Origin: a virus
Virus record (IMG/VR): IMGVR_UViG_3300044998_001391
Coordinates: 1-26,381 of that record
Strand: one strand, 5' to 3'
Length of the DNA: 26,381 nt
This document shows, one piece after another, positions 482-13,315 of this stretch; within the stretch, counting starts at the first letter, position 1, and every line of letters starts with the position of its first letter. The translations under genes were made by a program, and so were the position numbers. The notes below the pieces were generated by a model. The model was given only the letters and a program-made list of their open reading frames with translations, ran no database searches and was not told the origin of the DNA.

Positions 482-1363
482 CTATGAGTTTAAAAGTGAT
501 TTGATTACATTTTCCAGCGGCATGATCTCATCGATCAGGCCAATTTTAACGGCATCGCGGGCAAAGAAAACTTTACCGGTGCCCCATTCTTCACGGCCAG
601 ATTTAAGCTTATCAGCCCGGCCAGATTCAACCATTTTCAGAAACCTGTCATTGATGGCATTGAGGTCTTGCTTAATGAGTTTGAACTCGCCTTTATCAAT
701 GGCATCACGATAGGGCTTGTTTTTATCAGTGCTGGCATCGGCATACACTTCAATAATCTTTATGCCCTCTTTTTCAAAATACCCTTTATAGTCAGCCAGG
801 GTTAAAAAGGTTCCAATGGAACCAACCCGGGCCAGCTCCTGATTGGCTACTATGTAGTTTGCCTGCGATGCAATCATCATCCCGGCACTGGCTGAAAGAT
901 CATCAATAAAGGCAACAGTGGGTTTTGAAACTGATTTAACAACCTCTGCCATGGCCATAGCCGCGTAGGCTTCGCCACCTGGAGTATCCATGAGAAGGAT
1001 GTGGGCTTTGATGTTTGGATTTTTATCGGCACGTAGTAAAATATCTGCTTTGGTTACTGTACCAGAATCACCACATGCCTGATCGTATTTGGTGATTACA
1101 TCCTGCATGCTGATGATGGCTACCGAATTTTCGGGAGCTGCTTCGGGGGGAGCGGCTTCGCCATAGGTGCTGATAAAATATGCACCTGGAATGCCGCAAC
1201 CAATTACACCGATTCTTGAATCTTCCTTTGATTTACCTTCTGAAGTAAACGGCTGAAAGTTTCCTTTAATAAAGGAAGCAACCAATGGCAAATAAACTTC
1301 AGCTGCCTCAGGCGATATTGCCCAGGCAGCTGAAAGAGATTGTGTAATGGCTCTGATCTTCAT
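482..1363 (-). CDS. Prohead maturation protease, S49/ClpP-like serine peptidase
   Basis: A 293-aa protein with the ClpP/crotonase fold signature of S49 (SppA-like) phage proteases. The segment HILLMDTPGGEAYAAMAMAE gives the Gly-Gly oxyanion loop. DDLSASAGMMIASQA holds the likely nucleophile (Ser before Ala-Gly-Met, about residue 159), and RVGSIGTF follows as in SppA. A Lys in DKNKPYRD, about 50 residues further on, is the probable general base. In phages this enzyme cleaves scaffold and capsid precursors inside the prohead. I chose ATG at 1363; the in-frame TTG at 1381 adds only six residues. The next gene downstream is the scaffold-like protein, which fits the role well. Confidence 0.82.
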   Translation of the reverse strand: MKIRAITQSLSAAWAISPEAAEVYLPLVASFIKGNFQPFTSEGKSKEDSRIGVIGCGIPGAYFISTYGEAAPPEAAPENSVAIISMQDVITKYDQACGDSGTVTKADILLRADKNPNIKAHILLMDTPGGEAYAAMAMAEVVKSVSKPTVAFIDDLSASAGMMIASQANYIVANQELARVGSIGTFLTLADYKGYFEKEGIKIIEVYADASTDKNKPYRDAIDKGEFKLIKQDLNAINDRFLKMVESGRADKLKSGREEWGTGKVFFARDAVKIGLIDEIMPLENVIKSLLNS

Positions 1364-1407
1364 GAGTGATGCGAAGATCAATCATGAAGCCAGCGTAAAA
1401 AAGGACG

Positions 1408-7856: not shown

Positions 7857-7961
7857 CGGAGAGAGCTGGATTCGAACCAGCAGGCAGCGTTTTTGGTTGT
7901 CCGGGCTTTGCTGTCATAAACCCCAATCGTTTAATTAACTTGCTTCCAAGCTTACCTCTCC
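7857..7961 (-). other. tRNA-Ser-like element: 3' half of a tRNA, possibly a degenerate tRNA gene or att remnant
   Basis: On the minus strand a perfect T arm (GCTGG, TTCGAAT, CCAGC; 7865-7881) is followed by TCTCTCC and discriminator G (7857), as in class II tRNA-Ser 3' ends. A candidate 5' acceptor strand GGAGAGG (7955-7961) pairs over all 7 positions and is followed by T-A as at positions 8-9. A stem TAAAC/GTTTA with a 7-nt loop lies between, but the base at position 33 is A, the D arm is poor, and the total of 105 nt is too long. It fills a 160-bp gap between genes. It may be a decayed tRNA, or a tRNA 3' end captured by integration. Confidence 0.5.
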
Positions 7962-7984: not shown

Positions 7985-7998
7985 TGAGCATTTATGCT
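7985..7998. repeat. 14-bp repeat TGAGCATTTATGCT, copy 1
   Basis: TGAGCATTTATGCT contains the dyad AGCAT-TT-ATGCT and occurs again at 9314-9327 before the integrase. This copy overlaps nothing coding: it lies just after the 50-aa gene stop and 24 bp upstream of the tRNA-like element. Confidence 0.6.
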
Positions 7999-9313: not shown

Positions 9314-9327
9314 TGAGCATTTATGCT
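9314..9327. repeat. 14-bp repeat TGAGCATTTATGCT, copy 2
   Basis: Exact copy of 7985-7998. It also overlaps a longer inverted repeat, AATGAGC (9312-9318) with GCTCATT (9338-9344). It lies between the attP candidate and the phased GGTTCACAG repeats, so it may be an integrase, excisionase or regulator site. Confidence 0.6.
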
Positions 9328-9355
9328 GCTTTCAAAGGCTCATTTTGTCGCTTGT

Positions 9356-9397
9356 GGTTCACAGTTGGTTCACAGGATGCCAAAATTAGGTTCACAG
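9356..9397 (+). repeat. Three phased direct repeats GGTTCACAG before the integrase
   Basis: GGTTCACAG occurs at 9356-9364, 9367-9375 and 9389-9397. Start-to-start spacing is 11 and 22 bp, one and two helical turns. The array ends 4 bp before the integrase start codon. Its position beside the attP core fits integrase arm-type sites, or operators that let the integrase control its own expression. Confidence 0.7.
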
Positions 9398-9401
9398 AAA
9401 A

Positions 9402-10577
9402 ATGCAGCACATGATAACATTCAATTTTGTTCTACGATCAGACTTCTCCAATTCAAAGGGAGAAGCTCCCGTTTCCTTAAGAATTATCGGTAAATCAGTC
9501 ACCGGTAAGAAAATTAAAAAGGAAATATCCATGCACATTAAAGCACGGCCAGAATTTTGGAATCCTGCCAGGCAACGTATTGATTCAAAAGATAAAACTG
9601 AAATAGACAAGAATTTTATTCTTTCGAATGAGGAAGCAAAATGCAGTGATATTCTTACCAGATACCGCCTTATGGGCGTATATCCAACCGTTGAAGAGTT
9701 CATTGAGCTTTATAAAAAGTATCAGGAAAAACTTCTGCTTACTTCCTTTATTGAAGCTGAAATAAAGGAAATTGCCGAAAAGAGAATGGTTGCAAAGAAT
9801 ACGATTACTCAGTACATCACTTTTTTTGAATGTATTAAAACTCTTTTCCCGGCTTTGCCTATTAGCCAGTTATCGTTAAATCATATTGAAAAGCTGGACG
9901 GCTACCTATATCAGCAGCAATACTCACATAATACCCGGTGGAAGTATCACAAGAACTTTAAAAAGTTCATTCACCTGGCAGACAAAAAGAACTTGCTTCT
10001 TCGGAATCCATACGACGAATTCAAAATCAAAAAAGGCCCCGGACGAATTATCTATTTGGAAACTCACGAACTGGAAAGGATGATATCTATATATAAGGAT
10101 GATCTTCCGGAAACGTATAGAAAGGCATTAGCCAGGTACTTGTTTTCATTTTATGCATGCGGCCTAAGAATTTCTGATATTCAGAGAATAGGATGGGAAG
10201 ATCTCTCCGGTAATACCCTTAGGGTGATGCCTCAAAAAACAGCCCGATTTTTAAAGATACTGGATATTCCGGTAACCGAGCAGATGCTTGGTTACATAGA
10301 AAACAGCAATGGATTGTTTTTTAATAGGATGCCAGAGGCAACCATAAATAAAGCATTGAAGGAAGTGGCTAAGCTCTGTAATATCCATAAACCAATAACT
10401 TTTCATACGGCCCGGCATACGTTTGCAACATTGTTTTTGGAGTCAGGAGGTAAAATAGAAGTATTGAAAGAACTGCTGGGGCATAGCAAAATGGAAGATA
10501 CTATGGTGTATGTGCATGTGAGCCGTGCACGAAAGAAATCATCGCTTACTGCAATGTTTGACTACATCAGCCGGTAG
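9402..10577 (+). CDS. int: Tyrosine integrase
   Basis: 391 aa. The N-terminal part (about 1-100) is an arm-DNA-binding domain of the Bacteroidota type, followed by a SAM-like core-binding domain (about 110-210) and the catalytic domain. All catalytic residues are seen: Arg256 in CGLRISDI, Lys279 in PQKTAR, His335 and Arg338 in HTARHTF, His361 in LLGHSKMEDT and the nucleophile Tyr370 in MVYVHV. It should integrate and excise the phage at the tRNA-Asp-like att site 125 bp upstream. A second in-frame ATG at 9411 is an equally possible start. It lies between the repressor and a consensus promoter that overlaps its 3' end. Confidence 0.92.
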   Translation: MQHMITFNFVLRSDFSNSKGEAPVSLRIIGKSVTGKKIKKEISMHIKARPEFWNPARQRIDSKDKTEIDKNFILSNEEAKCSDILTRYRLMGVYPTVEEFIELYKKYQEKLLLTSFIEAEIKEIAEKRMVAKNTITQYITFFECIKTLFPALPISQLSLNHIEKLDGYLYQQQYSHNTRWKYHKNFKKFIHLADKKNLLLRNPYDEFKIKKGPGRIIYLETHELERMISIYKDDLPETYRKALARYLFSFYACGLRISDIQRIGWEDLSGNTLRVMPQKTARFLKILDIPVTEQMLGYIENSNGLFFNRMPEATINKALKEVAKLCNIHKPITFHTARHTFATLFLESGGKIEVLKELLGHSKMEDTMVYVHVSRARKKSSLTAMFDYISR

Positions 10578-10588
10578 TGTTATATTTG
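10557..10588 (+). promoter_or_regulatory. Bacteroidota-type promoter (TTTG, 20 bp, TATATTTG)
   Basis: TTTG at 10557-10560 and TATATTTG at 10581-10588 match the -33/-7 consensus TTTG-N19-21-TAnnTTTG exactly, with a 20-bp spacer. The -33 box lies inside the end of the integrase gene. The expected start of transcription, 3-7 nt past the -7 box, coincides with the first base of the structured RNA at 10592. Confidence 0.8.
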
Positions 10589-10591
10589 TAT

Positions 10592-10691
10592 GCCCGCATT
10601 TTACAGAGTACAAAAGTCTCCGGTTATTGGAGATCCGGTGAAAGTCCGGTGCAGTACTCTGTATTGCGGGCCCACCAATAACCGGTTTTTT
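10592..10691 (+). ncRNA. Compact pseudoknotted leader RNA, family unknown
   Basis: GCCCGCA (10592-10598) pairs with TGCGGGC (10665-10671), and ACAGAGTAC (10603-10611) pairs with GTACTCTGT (10654-10662), giving a long two-part helix. Inside lie a hairpin TCTCC/GGAGA (10617-10633) and a CCGG/CCGG hairpin with loop TGAAAGT (10635-10649). The first hairpin and its loop, CCGGTTATTGG (10620-10630), are complementary over 11 bp to CCAATAACCGG (10675-10685), which lies outside the helix. Forming that pairing makes an H-type pseudoknot. Six Ts (10686-10691) follow directly, as in a terminator, and then the ATG at 10692. The layout fits a riboswitch-like or ribozyme-like leader. Confidence 0.78.
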
Positions 10692-10916
10692 ATGACAGCA
10701 ATAGAAATCATCCTTCAAAGCTTTGAGCCAGCGCCTGAGTTATCAAAAAACACAAAGCTTTATACAACGAGAGAACTGATTAAGATGATATCAGGAATCA
10801 TTGATGTTTCAGAAGATGAAATGGCCGATGATTTAAAGAGTGCAGGCTTTAAGGTTCATCTGCATACTGATGACGGAGAGCCGGTTGGTTTTAGATGGAT
10901 GATCAATAAAAAATAG
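10692..10916 (+). CDS. Small protein controlled by the structured leader
   Basis: 74 aa. Residues from about 23 on (LYTTRELIKMISGIIDVSEDEMADDLKSAGFKVHLHTDDGEPVGF..., ending WMINKK) look like a small winged-helix fold: three helices followed by a beta hairpin. The true start is ATG at 10692. An ATG at 10590 in the same frame would force the pseudoknotted RNA to be translated and is rejected. There is no Shine-Dalgarno: the six Us that close the RNA end right before the ATG. The stop codon abuts the stop of the convergent gene. The function is unknown. Regulation by the leader is inferred. Confidence 0.65.
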   Translation: MTAIEIILQSFEPAPELSKNTKLYTTRELIKMISGIIDVSEDEMADDLKSAGFKVHLHTDDGEPVGFRWMINKK

Positions 10917-11435
10917 CTAGCCTCCAACCTTTATTAAAAAGTTGCCAGCGCGTATCTTTTGAGCAGGAGCTATTAGTTGAAATATTAAACCAACCCCTGA
11001 AAATCCAATACCAACATAAGTTAATTCAGGTGTTCCCGTTGCTGCCCCAATAGCAGTGCCAATCAGACCAACGCCTCCTATAATATACCCGGCATATTGA
11101 TATTTAGCGGAGCTGATTAATGCTCTTCCTGCCATAGTAATATCATTATAAGATTCTATCAAAGGTTTATCTTCCCTTTTTACGTTACTAATCTGATAGC
11201 CTTTTTTATGGAATTCATTTCTTACCTGTAAAGAAGTTCTTACTACTACTCTATCTATCGAATCTCTTCCAATGTCAATGACCGAATTTCCGTCAACAGA
11301 AAACTCTATGGATTTGTTCCAAGGCCACTTGGCTGTTCCAGTAATTATCCTTCCGGAAGTTAAGAATACTGTGTCAATTTGTGCTTTAGCGTTTACAGAT
11401 AAAGCTAACAATAGTATCAAAATGTAATGTCTCAT
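10917..11435 (-). CDS. Secreted or envelope protein at the end of the late operon
   Basis: 172 aa from ATG at 11435. The N-terminus is a clear Sec signal peptide (MRHYILILLLALSVNAKAQ, cleavage after AKA). The mature part starts with a strand-rich domain (IDTVFLTSGRIITGTAKW...). It then has two hydrophobic Gly/Ala-rich segments (YAGYIIGGVGLIGTAIGAATG and YVGIGFSGVGLIFQLIA). A GTG at 11462 overlaps the stop of the tail gene but would precede the signal peptide with nine extra residues. It is the last gene of the late operon. It may be a lysogenic-conversion or envelope-modifying cargo gene. No family is recognised. Confidence 0.6.
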   Translation of the reverse strand: MRHYILILLLALSVNAKAQIDTVFLTSGRIITGTAKWPWNKSIEFSVDGNSVIDIGRDSIDRVVVRTSLQVRNEFHKKGYQISNVKREDKPLIESYNDITMAGRALISSAKYQYAGYIIGGVGLIGTAIGAATGTPELTYVGIGFSGVGLIFQLIAPAQKIRAGNFLIKVGG

Positions 11436-11458
11436 AGGATTCAGTTTTTTCAAAAATA

Positions 11459-13315
11459 TCACATTTTGATCATATCCATTTCAGCCAGGGTAATTTTTTC
11501 CATGTTGAGCTGCACCGATACAGAAACAAGAAAGTATTCTCCCTGGTCGATTCGGTATTTTTTACGCAAATCAAGTTTGTTTAATTCCTCTGGAGATAGC
11601 ATTTTCCACATTCTTACCGGTACGGTATTAAAACCCAGTGCTTTGGCATAGCCTTCTAAAAAATTGGCTACAATTCCGGAACCTGGTACCTGATGATCAT
11701 TGTTAAGCAATAAGGCTATGGTGGAATTTGTATAAACATTCCCTGCTGCGTTTATCAAATCTACTCTTCCCCATGGGTAACGCCTGTCAGCCGCAACTTC
11801 AGTTTCTGTTGGCACTCTACCCAGAAAATTGGTATGCGCTATTCCTTCGTATATCATCATCATGAATCCGAAATCGTTGGTATTCTGCCACTGACTACCA
11901 ACCATCGGGCAGTTAACGTGTGGCACAGATACCCTTTTGTTGAACACTCCGCTGTAATACCAAAGTATTGCAGGGTTCTTTTGCATGGGGTAAGAAAGTT
12001 CTGTTTCAAGCTTCAGGGCATCTTCCTCTCCTGAACAATATTCATCAAAATAGTTACATGCGTTGTTGTTTCCATCAGGCTCATACTTTGCCCAGCCAAA
12101 TGTAACCGGGTATTTGCTGATTTGTTTGTAGATATAATAACCATCACCAGTAACTAAAACAACCTGACCATTAACCGGAGAACCAACAGTCCCGGTGGAT
12201 GAAACTTCGATTATTGCTAACGGTGGATCCGGCATTTTGGCAGGATAAGCAATATCATCCAGATTGGAAACATTCATTTTTATACAAAGCTTTCTGGATG
12301 CGGCTTCGTTGTTTTTTTCATATTTCTCGGTTACCAGGTTTGAAAATTCAACTACTTCTGCATTTTCAAAATCAAATATTACCGGGCGAATCTCTACCGT
12401 TTTTTCCAGCGAATTGAACCAAAAGGTAACGCCATAACCTACTTCCAGAGAACGGATAAAGTCCTCAACTTTAATGTTTGGAAGTAAATCAAAGGGATCC
12501 ATCCAAAAGGATGTGCTGGTATTGTCAAACTCACCTGCAATATCACGGTTATTGTAAATAACCATCTTCCTGAATTCAGGAAGATGGGTGAAAAAGTTGT
12601 ATGTTATCCGGTAACCGAGCTCTGCAAATAAGTTTTGCAATACCCAGTTAAGTTTTAAAAACGGACTTACAACATTGGGAACTCCCCACAGGGTATCCGG
12701 GAATTGAAAATCAGCCCCGGTGAGATCAGGATAGACTGCATCAATATTGGGTGGCGGTCCGATTGGGCCCGGCCAAACAATAACATTGATGTTATTCTGC
12801 ATGTGCAGATTATTATTTACAGCCCCAGAAATATCAAAGAGGTATTTATTCTCTACCGGGAAAATATGATAGACATCAAAAAGGGTGTTGCAGCCGTTTG
12901 TAAGCAGTTCAACTATCCAGTCATTGTAATTATCGGCTGTAAAATAATAGCGGCCACCGTATTCATAATCCCTTAGGGTTTTATCTTTAACAAGGGTATA
13001 AAAATCTGCATCATCCAGCCCCGAATAAACTTCATACCCCAGATTGGTTGATTTTTTAAGCTTCAAAACGCCTGAGAATACCATCAGGGTTTTCCAGTAA
13101 TATTGCACCGGCTTGGTGATGCTTGAAAGTTCTTTTTTGTGCAGCTTCCTGGCAAACTCAAATATCTCATCATTAATAGGGCATTTGGGCAGCGTATGGT
13201 TAAGTGCGAACGACTTTGATTCACGAAGCCAAAAGAATTGGGTTTGCTTGACAAAATCTATTGAAGTGCGGTTATCTACTACCGCCTCTACACCATCAAT
13301 TACTATTCTAAGCAT
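11459..13315 (-). CDS. Large distal tail/baseplate protein
   Basis: 618 aa, beta-rich, with many aromatic residues and no signal peptide. It starts MLRIVIDGVEAVVDNRTSIDF and has a Pro-rich strand (IVWPGPIGPPPNID) and several Tyr/Trp-rich segments. It overlaps the preceding 665-aa gene by 13 bp and follows the tape measure by one gene. In siphophages the genes after the tape measure encode the distal tail and tail-associated host-contact proteins. No enzymatic motif was found. Which of these roles it fills cannot be decided from the sequence. Confidence 0.6.
   Translation of the reverse strand: MLRIVIDGVEAVVDNRTSIDFVKQTQFFWLRESKSFALNHTLPKCPINDEIFEFARKLHKKELSSITKPVQYYWKTLMVFSGVLKLKKSTNLGYEVYSGLDDADFYTLVKDKTLRDYEYGGRYYFTADNYNDWIVELLTNGCNTLFDVYHIFPVENKYLFDISGAVNNNLHMQNNINVIVWPGPIGPPPNIDAVYPDLTGADFQFPDTLWGVPNVVSPFLKLNWVLQNLFAELGYRITYNFFTHLPEFRKMVIYNNRDIAGEFDNTSTSFWMDPFDLLPNIKVEDFIRSLEVGYGVTFWFNSLEKTVEIRPVIFDFENAEVVEFSNLVTEKYEKNNEAASRKLCIKMNVSNLDDIAYPAKMPDPPLAIIEVSSTGTVGSPVNGQVVLVTGDGYYIYKQISKYPVTFGWAKYEPDGNNNACNYFDEYCSGEEDALKLETELSYPMQKNPAILWYYSGVFNKRVSVPHVNCPMVGSQWQNTNDFGFMMMIYEGIAHTNFLGRVPTETEVAADRRYPWGRVDLINAAGNVYTNSTIALLLNNDHQVPGSGIVANFLEGYAKALGFNTVPVRMWKMLSPEELNKLDLRKKYRIDQGEYFLVSVSVQLNMEKITLAEMDMIKM

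What the first reader, a model, noticed from the sequence alone, without database searches (positions are those of the whole stretch)
10557..10691. Promoter-driven pseudoknotted leader RNA after the integrase, family unknown
A consensus Bacteroidota promoter (TTTG-N20-TATATTTG) places transcription at the first base of a highly structured RNA. The outer helix has 7 and 9 bp arms. Two small hairpins lie inside it. An 11-bp complement (10620-10630 with 10675-10685) crosses the outer helix to form a pseudoknot. The second strand is followed by six Us and then by the AUG of a 74-codon gene, so the pseudoknot helix doubles as a possible terminator or a start-site block. The hairpin CCGG-UGAAAGU-CCGG resembles the P5 part of cobalamin riboswitches, but no other conserved part was found. 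A metabolite-, phage- or host-signal-responsive switch, or a self-cleaving RNA, are open possibilities. This is my strongest candidate for an undescribed element.
Basis: partly seen in the sequence, partly recalled or inferred. Interest (0 to 1): 0.88.

Follow-up and report, generated by a model that had tools for sequence, protein, structure and literature searches.

The report
Phage leader RNA with complementary loops
Just after the integrase gene, two related viruses of Bacteroidota-type bacteria carry a strongly folded RNA of about 100 bases, kept almost unchanged and ending at the start of a small gene; it most likely acts as an on/off brake on that gene, but its signal is unknown and only two copies were found.

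Summary
At 10592-10691 (+) lies a compact RNA: a 7-bp and a 10-bp stem, two hairpins, and an 11-bp complement between the first hairpin loop and the tail, then six U and the AUG of a 74-codon gene. A Bacteroidota-type promoter sits upstream. It folds far better than shuffles (z -4.5), and the 11-bp complement is reached by 1 of 20,000 tail shuffles. One relative was found (IMGVR_UViG_3300028735_000019). There 10571-10699 differs at 3 of 129 positions, against 78/400 and 39/169 in the flanks (P about 1e-7). Two of the three changes compensate each other in the 10-bp stem; the third turns A-U into G-U in the pseudoknot. So it is a real, conserved RNA on the + strand. I refine the pseudoknot: its core is a 7-nt hairpin loop exactly complementary to the 7-nt loop of a weak tail hairpin. 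It matches no Rfam family. The cobalamin likeness stops at one T-loop hairpin. No further homologue turned up in viral contigs, phage and plasmid records, or about 1,390 genomes scanned with a covariance model. Best reading: a cis-acting attenuator of the 74-aa (winged-helix-like) gene, in a cargo slot between integrase and tail genes. Ligand, if any, unknown.

The parts
10557..10588 (+). Bacteroidota-type promoter: -33 TTTG (10557-10560), 20-nt spacer, -7 TATATTTG (10581-10588), inside the end of the integrase gene
   Evidence: consensus from PMC7366714; unchanged in L002 except 10570
10592..10598 (+). P1 5' strand GCCCGCA (pairs 10665-10671)
10602..10611 (+). P2 5' strand UACAGAGUAC (pairs 10654-10663); 10606 G>A in L002 compensated at 10659
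10616..10634 (+). P3 hairpin GUCUCC-GGUUAUU-GGAGAU; 7-nt loop L3 10622-10628
10620..10630 (+). Pseudoknot 5' strand CCGGUUAUUGG (pairs 10675-10685); 10626 A>G in L002 gives G-U
10635..10649 (+). P4 hairpin CCGG-UGAAAGU-CCGG, T-loop-like; the only part resembling cobalamin riboswitches
10654..10663 (+). P2 3' strand GUACUCUGUA
10665..10671 (+). P1 3' strand UGCGGGC
10675..10685 (+). Pseudoknot 3' strand CCAAUAACCGG; its middle AAUAACC (10677-10683) is the loop of a weak 3-bp tail hairpin (10674-10676/10684-10686) and exactly complements L3
10686..10691 (+). U6 run directly after the pseudoknot helix: terminator-like tail, or structure-proximal start region
10692..10916 (+). 74-aa gene, predicted winged-helix-like fold, the likely regulated gene
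10917..11462 (-). Convergent 181-aa gene with N-terminal signal-peptide-like stretch; rest of the cargo slot between integrase and tail genes

Best explanation
It is a cis-acting regulatory leader (attenuator) of the 74-aa phage gene. Its own promoter starts transcription at or near 10592 (inferred). As the RNA emerges, P3 and P4 fold first, then P2 and P1 close a three-way junction (predicted energies). When the tail emerges, its AAUAACC pairs with the 7-nt loop L3, by kissing or by strand exchange into the full 11-bp helix, directly before U6 and the AUG. With this contact formed, expression of the 74-aa gene is off or low: the 11-bp helix plus U6 acts as an unusual intrinsic terminator, and/or the helix, ending 6 nt from an AUG that lacks the favoured upstream A, blocks the ribosome. 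Anything that keeps L3 and the tail apart (a protein on the T-loop hairpin, the gene product itself, a competing RNA, or a ligand) would switch the gene on. Shown: structure, non-randomness, conservation, pairing kept in a relative. Inferred: transcription, off-state, mode of control, signal.
For: Fold z -4.52; the 105-nt windows at 10578 on both strands rank among the top four of 7,508. Promoter abuts P1. Block 10571-10699 has 3/129 changes against 78/400 in int (P 1.7e-7) and 39/169 in the gene body (P 5.5e-8). Of the 3 changes, 10606 G>A with 10659 C>T is compensatory in P2, and 10626 A>G keeps the pseudoknot as G-U. 11-bp tail complement 1/20,000 by chance. Predicted energies put the P3 form (-40.4) near the pseudoknot form (-31.5 for P1+P2+P4, plus about -20.8 stacking, less a pseudoknot penalty of roughly 9 that is my estimate): poised for switching. 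U6 and AUG follow at once; Bacteroidota starts favour A at -3/-6 and low structure from -20 to +20 (PMC6847099), while this start has T at both.
Against: Only one relative, so one covarying pair; the formal shuffle test cannot be significant with two sequences. No transcript data. The + strand terminator scan (loops 3-8 nt) finds nothing here; the terminator helix would enclose a 44-nt structured loop. The reverse strand folds about as well. P1+P2 (about 17 bp) with only 3 nt between P1 and the tail strand constrains the pseudoknot geometry. The 74-aa gene has no recognised family.
Confidence: 0.55

Rival explanations
1. A stand-alone small RNA (about 95-100 nt) that ends at U6 and acts in trans, for example through the exposed L3/tail loops, with the 74-aa gene expressed only by read-through or from elsewhere.
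For: Own promoter, compact fold with U6 end; TSS plus terminator is the usual anatomy of Bacteroides sRNAs (PMC7366714). The sequence itself, not only the pairing, is conserved.
Against: Conservation runs a few codons past the AUG, to 10699; no target proposed; no canonical terminator hairpin; loops pair with each other rather than staying free.
Confidence: 0.2
2. A ligand-binding riboswitch of an undescribed class, or one descended from a cobalamin aptamer core.
For: Complex fold with T-loop hairpin and tail kissing loop, like the logic of corrinoid riboswitches, where L5-L13 kissing controls the expression platform (PMC10653944). Rfam AdoCbl aligns at 16.9 bits with the pseudoknot helix as its outer stem. 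The model built here weakly picks up cobalamin riboswitches.
Against: Below the gathering score (50); beyond the hairpin the similarity is as good in 364/3000 shuffles; no GCCACUG and no UCCCG loop; only two copies known, next to no metabolic gene.
Confidence: 0.12
3. A DNA-level element: the inverted repeats are protein-binding or recombination (attP) sites next to the integrase.
For: Two nested inverted repeats beside int; both strands fold.
Against: Likely arm-type repeats (three TGGTTCACAG) lie on the other side of int, 9355-9397. The 10626 A>G change keeps pairing only as RNA G-U on the + strand. A promoter points into it.
Confidence: 0.06
4. The stretch is simply the first 34 codons of a 108-aa protein starting at AUG 10590.
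For: The frame is open in both phages.
Against: The three changes fall at codon positions 1 and 2, none at position 3, while the rest of the gene changes freely (codon positions read from the sequence); the promoter places the start of transcription at or after this AUG; the strong fold would be unexplained.
Confidence: 0.05
5. A self-cleaving RNA.
For: Pseudoknotted compact RNA of ribozyme size.
Against: No match to any Rfam ribozyme family.
Confidence: 0.02

Closest known systems
Corrinoid (cobalamin) riboswitches, Rfam clan CL00101 (RF00174, RF01482)
   Same: T-loop hairpin CCGG-UGAAAGU-CCGG like P4/L4; regulation there works through a loop-loop contact with an expression-platform hairpin (PMC10653944)
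   Different: No J6/3 GCCACUG, no UCCCG L5, no P6 domain; kissing loops are different hairpins; score far below threshold; flank similarity not significant
HMP2_4078 candidate structured RNA (PMC8040213)
   Same: About 109 nt, folds on both strands, Bacteroidetes, near phage integrase and D5 domains; our phage has an integrase and a DUF5906 (D5-like) primase
   Different: Its sequence could not be compared here; its structure is only in a figure. Identity is open
Transcription attenuators / translational leader switches with mutually exclusive hairpins
   Same: Leader with a helix directly before U-run and start codon that competes with an upstream hairpin
   Different: Off-state helix is a tail-to-loop pseudoknot instead of a local hairpin; signal unknown
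Intrinsic terminators
   Same: GC-containing 11-bp helix followed by six U
   Different: Helix strands are 44 nt apart with structure between; not detected as a canonical terminator

Membership tests
Cobalamin / AdoCbl riboswitch | Rfam covariance score at or above gathering | tested here: not met
   RF01482 16.9 bits against 50; RF00174 not listed
Cobalamin / AdoCbl riboswitch | P4 hairpin with T-loop | tested here: met
   CCGG-UGAAAGU-CCGG, identical hairpin in L131 cobalamin riboswitch
Cobalamin / AdoCbl riboswitch | J6/3 GCCACUG and L5 UCCCG core | tested here: not met
   GCCCACC and UACUCUGUA instead
Cobalamin / AdoCbl riboswitch | Sequence kinship around P4 | tested here: inconclusive
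   364 of 3000 hairpin-preserving shuffles as similar
Cobalamin / AdoCbl riboswitch | Binds a corrinoid | not testable with these tools
   needs in-line probing
Any Rfam family (ribozymes, known riboswitches, tmRNA, introns) | Match at gathering score | tested here: not met
   0 of 4227 families
Conserved cis-regulatory structured RNA | Structure more stable than shuffles and conserved above flanks | tested here: met
Conserved cis-regulatory structured RNA | Covariation in helices over many homologues | tested here: inconclusive
   one compensatory pair and one wobble in the only relative
Intrinsic terminator | Short-loop GC-rich hairpin followed by U-run on + strand | tested here: not met
   only the long-range 11-bp helix precedes U6
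HMP2_4078 candidate RNA | Sequence/structure model | not testable with these tools
   model not in Rfam search or readable text

The most novel reading that the evidence does not exclude
A new class of phage-borne RNA switch in which a junction hairpin loop kisses a tail hairpin sitting on the U-run and start codon of a lysogenic cargo gene, responding to a host or phage signal; in the boldest form it was built from a cobalamin-aptamer hairpin.
Probability: 0.2. Interest if true: 0.72.

Novelty: new variant of a known kind. Interest (0 to 1): 0.45.

Why it matters
Structured leader RNAs in temperate Bacteroidota phages are hardly known. If the loop-tail contact controls the cargo gene, it would be a compact, testable example of RNA control of prophage gene expression in a phylum that lacks Shine-Dalgarno control, and a usable switch for engineering these bacteria.

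Tried and rejected
Rfam at gathering and at relaxed thresholds: nothing credible. Homologues: 8 viral-contig scans by protein, integrase, tail protein and four RNA patterns found only IMGVR_UViG_3300028735_000019. The other pattern hits (L007-L009, L152-L168, L174-L176) lack the helices. GTDB scans with the small protein (nothing) and an integrase fragment (80 loci, none of those searched with the RNA). Model R1 over about 1,390 genome searches in Bacteroidota, some genomes sampled twice (399 in the order of G001, 396 across the phylum, 251+108+237 in three orders): only weak chance-like hits or cobalamin riboswitches. The CCAAUAACCGGUUUUUU match in L117 shows none of the other helices. Phage and plasmid records: none. 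A nested cobalamin-like fold with a P5 hairpin (10651-10656/10662-10667) was considered: -26.0 against -40.4 kcal/mol for the three-way junction, so at most a minor state.

Full report
What is there. The window is a virus record with a Bacteroidota-phage layout: a regulator gene (+), an integrase (+, PF00589/PF17293), then convergent tail genes and the tape measure protein (-). In the named relatives Flavobacterium phage FPSV-D35, Cellulophaga phage Ingeline_1 and Flavobacterium phage laban6-1 the integrase meets the next (-) gene with no gene between them; these are only comparable in layout, since the downstream protein itself is not recognisably similar to that of FPSV-D35. In this phage and its one close relative an extra cassette sits in that slot: promoter, structured RNA, 74-aa gene (+) and a 181-aa gene (-). 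That is the usual place for cargo (moron-type) genes of temperate phages; this last step is inference. Bacteroides phage BT-TP2 carries a DUF4376 gene and a reverse transcriptase after its integrase.

The RNA. Promoter TTTG-N20-TATATTTG (10557-10588) ends just before GCCCGCA, the 5' strand of P1. P1 (7 bp) and P2 (10 bp) enclose P3 (6 bp, 7-nt loop GGUUAUU) and P4 (4 bp, loop UGAAAGU). Predicted energy is -42.2 kcal/mol, z -4.52, none of 200 shuffles as good. Scanned over the whole window with GC taken into account, the 105-nt windows at 10578 on the two strands are among the four most stable of 7,508. The tail CCAAUAACCGG complements CCGGUUAUUGG around L3 over 11 bp; shuffling the tail reaches 11 in 1 of 20,000 trials. 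Because both hairpins are closed by CC/GG, the complement extends to 11 bp, allowing either a kissing contact or strand exchange into a full helix (pairs listed).

Conservation. The only relative (L002, IMGVR_UViG_3300028735_000019; 74-aa protein 74% identical, integrase 83% identical) has the same element. Positions 10571-10699 hold 3 differences in 129, against 78 in 400 in the preceding integrase DNA (P 1.7e-7) and 39 in 169 in the following gene (P 5.5e-8). The three are G10606A and C10659T, which turn one G-C pair of P2 into A-U, and A10626G, which turns an A-U pair of the pseudoknot into G-U. The G-U is a pair only in RNA of the + strand. None falls at a third codon position of the overlapping open frame from AUG 10590 (read), which argues for selection on RNA, not on protein.

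Function. U6 and the AUG follow the pseudoknot helix with no spacer. In Bacteroidota, initiation is favoured by A at -3 and -6 and by low structure from -20 to +20 (PMC6847099); here both positions are T and the helix ends 6 nt before the AUG. So the loop-tail contact would repress the gene, by termination at U6, by blocking the ribosome, or both. Energies put the hairpin form and the pseudoknot form close together once a typical pseudoknot penalty is added (my estimate), as a switch would need. The 74-aa protein has no Pfam or PHROG family. Its two-sequence AlphaFold model (mean pLDDT 84 in the best model but 45-51 in the other four, so use with care) is winged-helix-like, closest in BFVD to a virulence-associated-protein-E (primase-type) protein of Flavobacterium phage lotta8-1 (E 9.8e-4); PDB matches are weak winged-helix proteins. 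A DNA- or RNA-binding regulator that controls its own leader is a reasonable guess only.

What it is not, as far as tested. No Rfam family at gathering. AdoCbl aligns at 16.9 bits, gathering 50. I compared the region with 18 cobalamin cores from one Bacteroidota order: keeping the hairpin and shuffling the rest, 364 of 3000 are as similar, so kinship beyond the T-loop hairpin is not supported. The invariant GCCACUG and UCCCG are absent. No canonical + strand terminator is found. A candidate RNA from a human-microbiome survey, HMP2_4078, is described as about 109 nt, palindromic, in Bacteroidetes near integrase and D5 domains (PMC8040213). It may or may not be the same kind of element; its model could not be examined here.

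Limits. Two sequences cannot give a covariation test. All functional steps are inferred. Homologue searches were broad, but exact-pattern or sampled: the whole viral collection by patterns and about 1,390 Bacteroidota genome searches by covariance model, so divergent copies may exist, above all in metagenomes, which could not be scanned.

Noticed in passing
window 9355-9397: Three direct repeats TGGTTCACAG (third AGGTTCACAG) directly upstream of int, in a stretch about 88% conserved in the relative: likely integrase arm-type sites, so attP probably lies on this side.
   Followed up: partly
window 7860-7895 (-): T arm and acceptor 3' end of a tRNA (CTGGTTCGAATCCAG...CTCTCCGC on the - strand) without a whole tRNA; a possible tRNA-derived attachment core or relic, in a stretch 83-90% conserved.
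   Followed up: partly
window 7986-7998 and 9315-9327: The same near-palindrome GAGCATTTATGCT occurs twice around the regulator genes: candidate operator pair of the phage repressor.
   Followed up: no
window 1233-1400: Another region of unusually stable predicted structure (105-nt windows at 1289 and 1296 on the - strand, ranks 2-3 of 7,508), around the start of the head protease gene.
   Followed up: no
window 11459-13315 against L002: Tail genes are mostly 90-99% identical between the two phages while the integrase/regulator part is only about 75%: mosaic evolution.
   Followed up: no
L008 5790-5846 (-): Phage contig with TCCGGTGAAAGTCCGG inside a CCTTGCAAG...CTTGCAAGG stem followed by seven T before a replication-type gene; same hairpin in another leader/terminator setting, possibly chance.
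   Followed up: partly
L177 2475-4266: Bacteroides phage BT-TP2 carries a DUF4376 gene and a reverse transcriptase after its integrase, in the slot where this phage has the RNA cassette.
   Followed up: no
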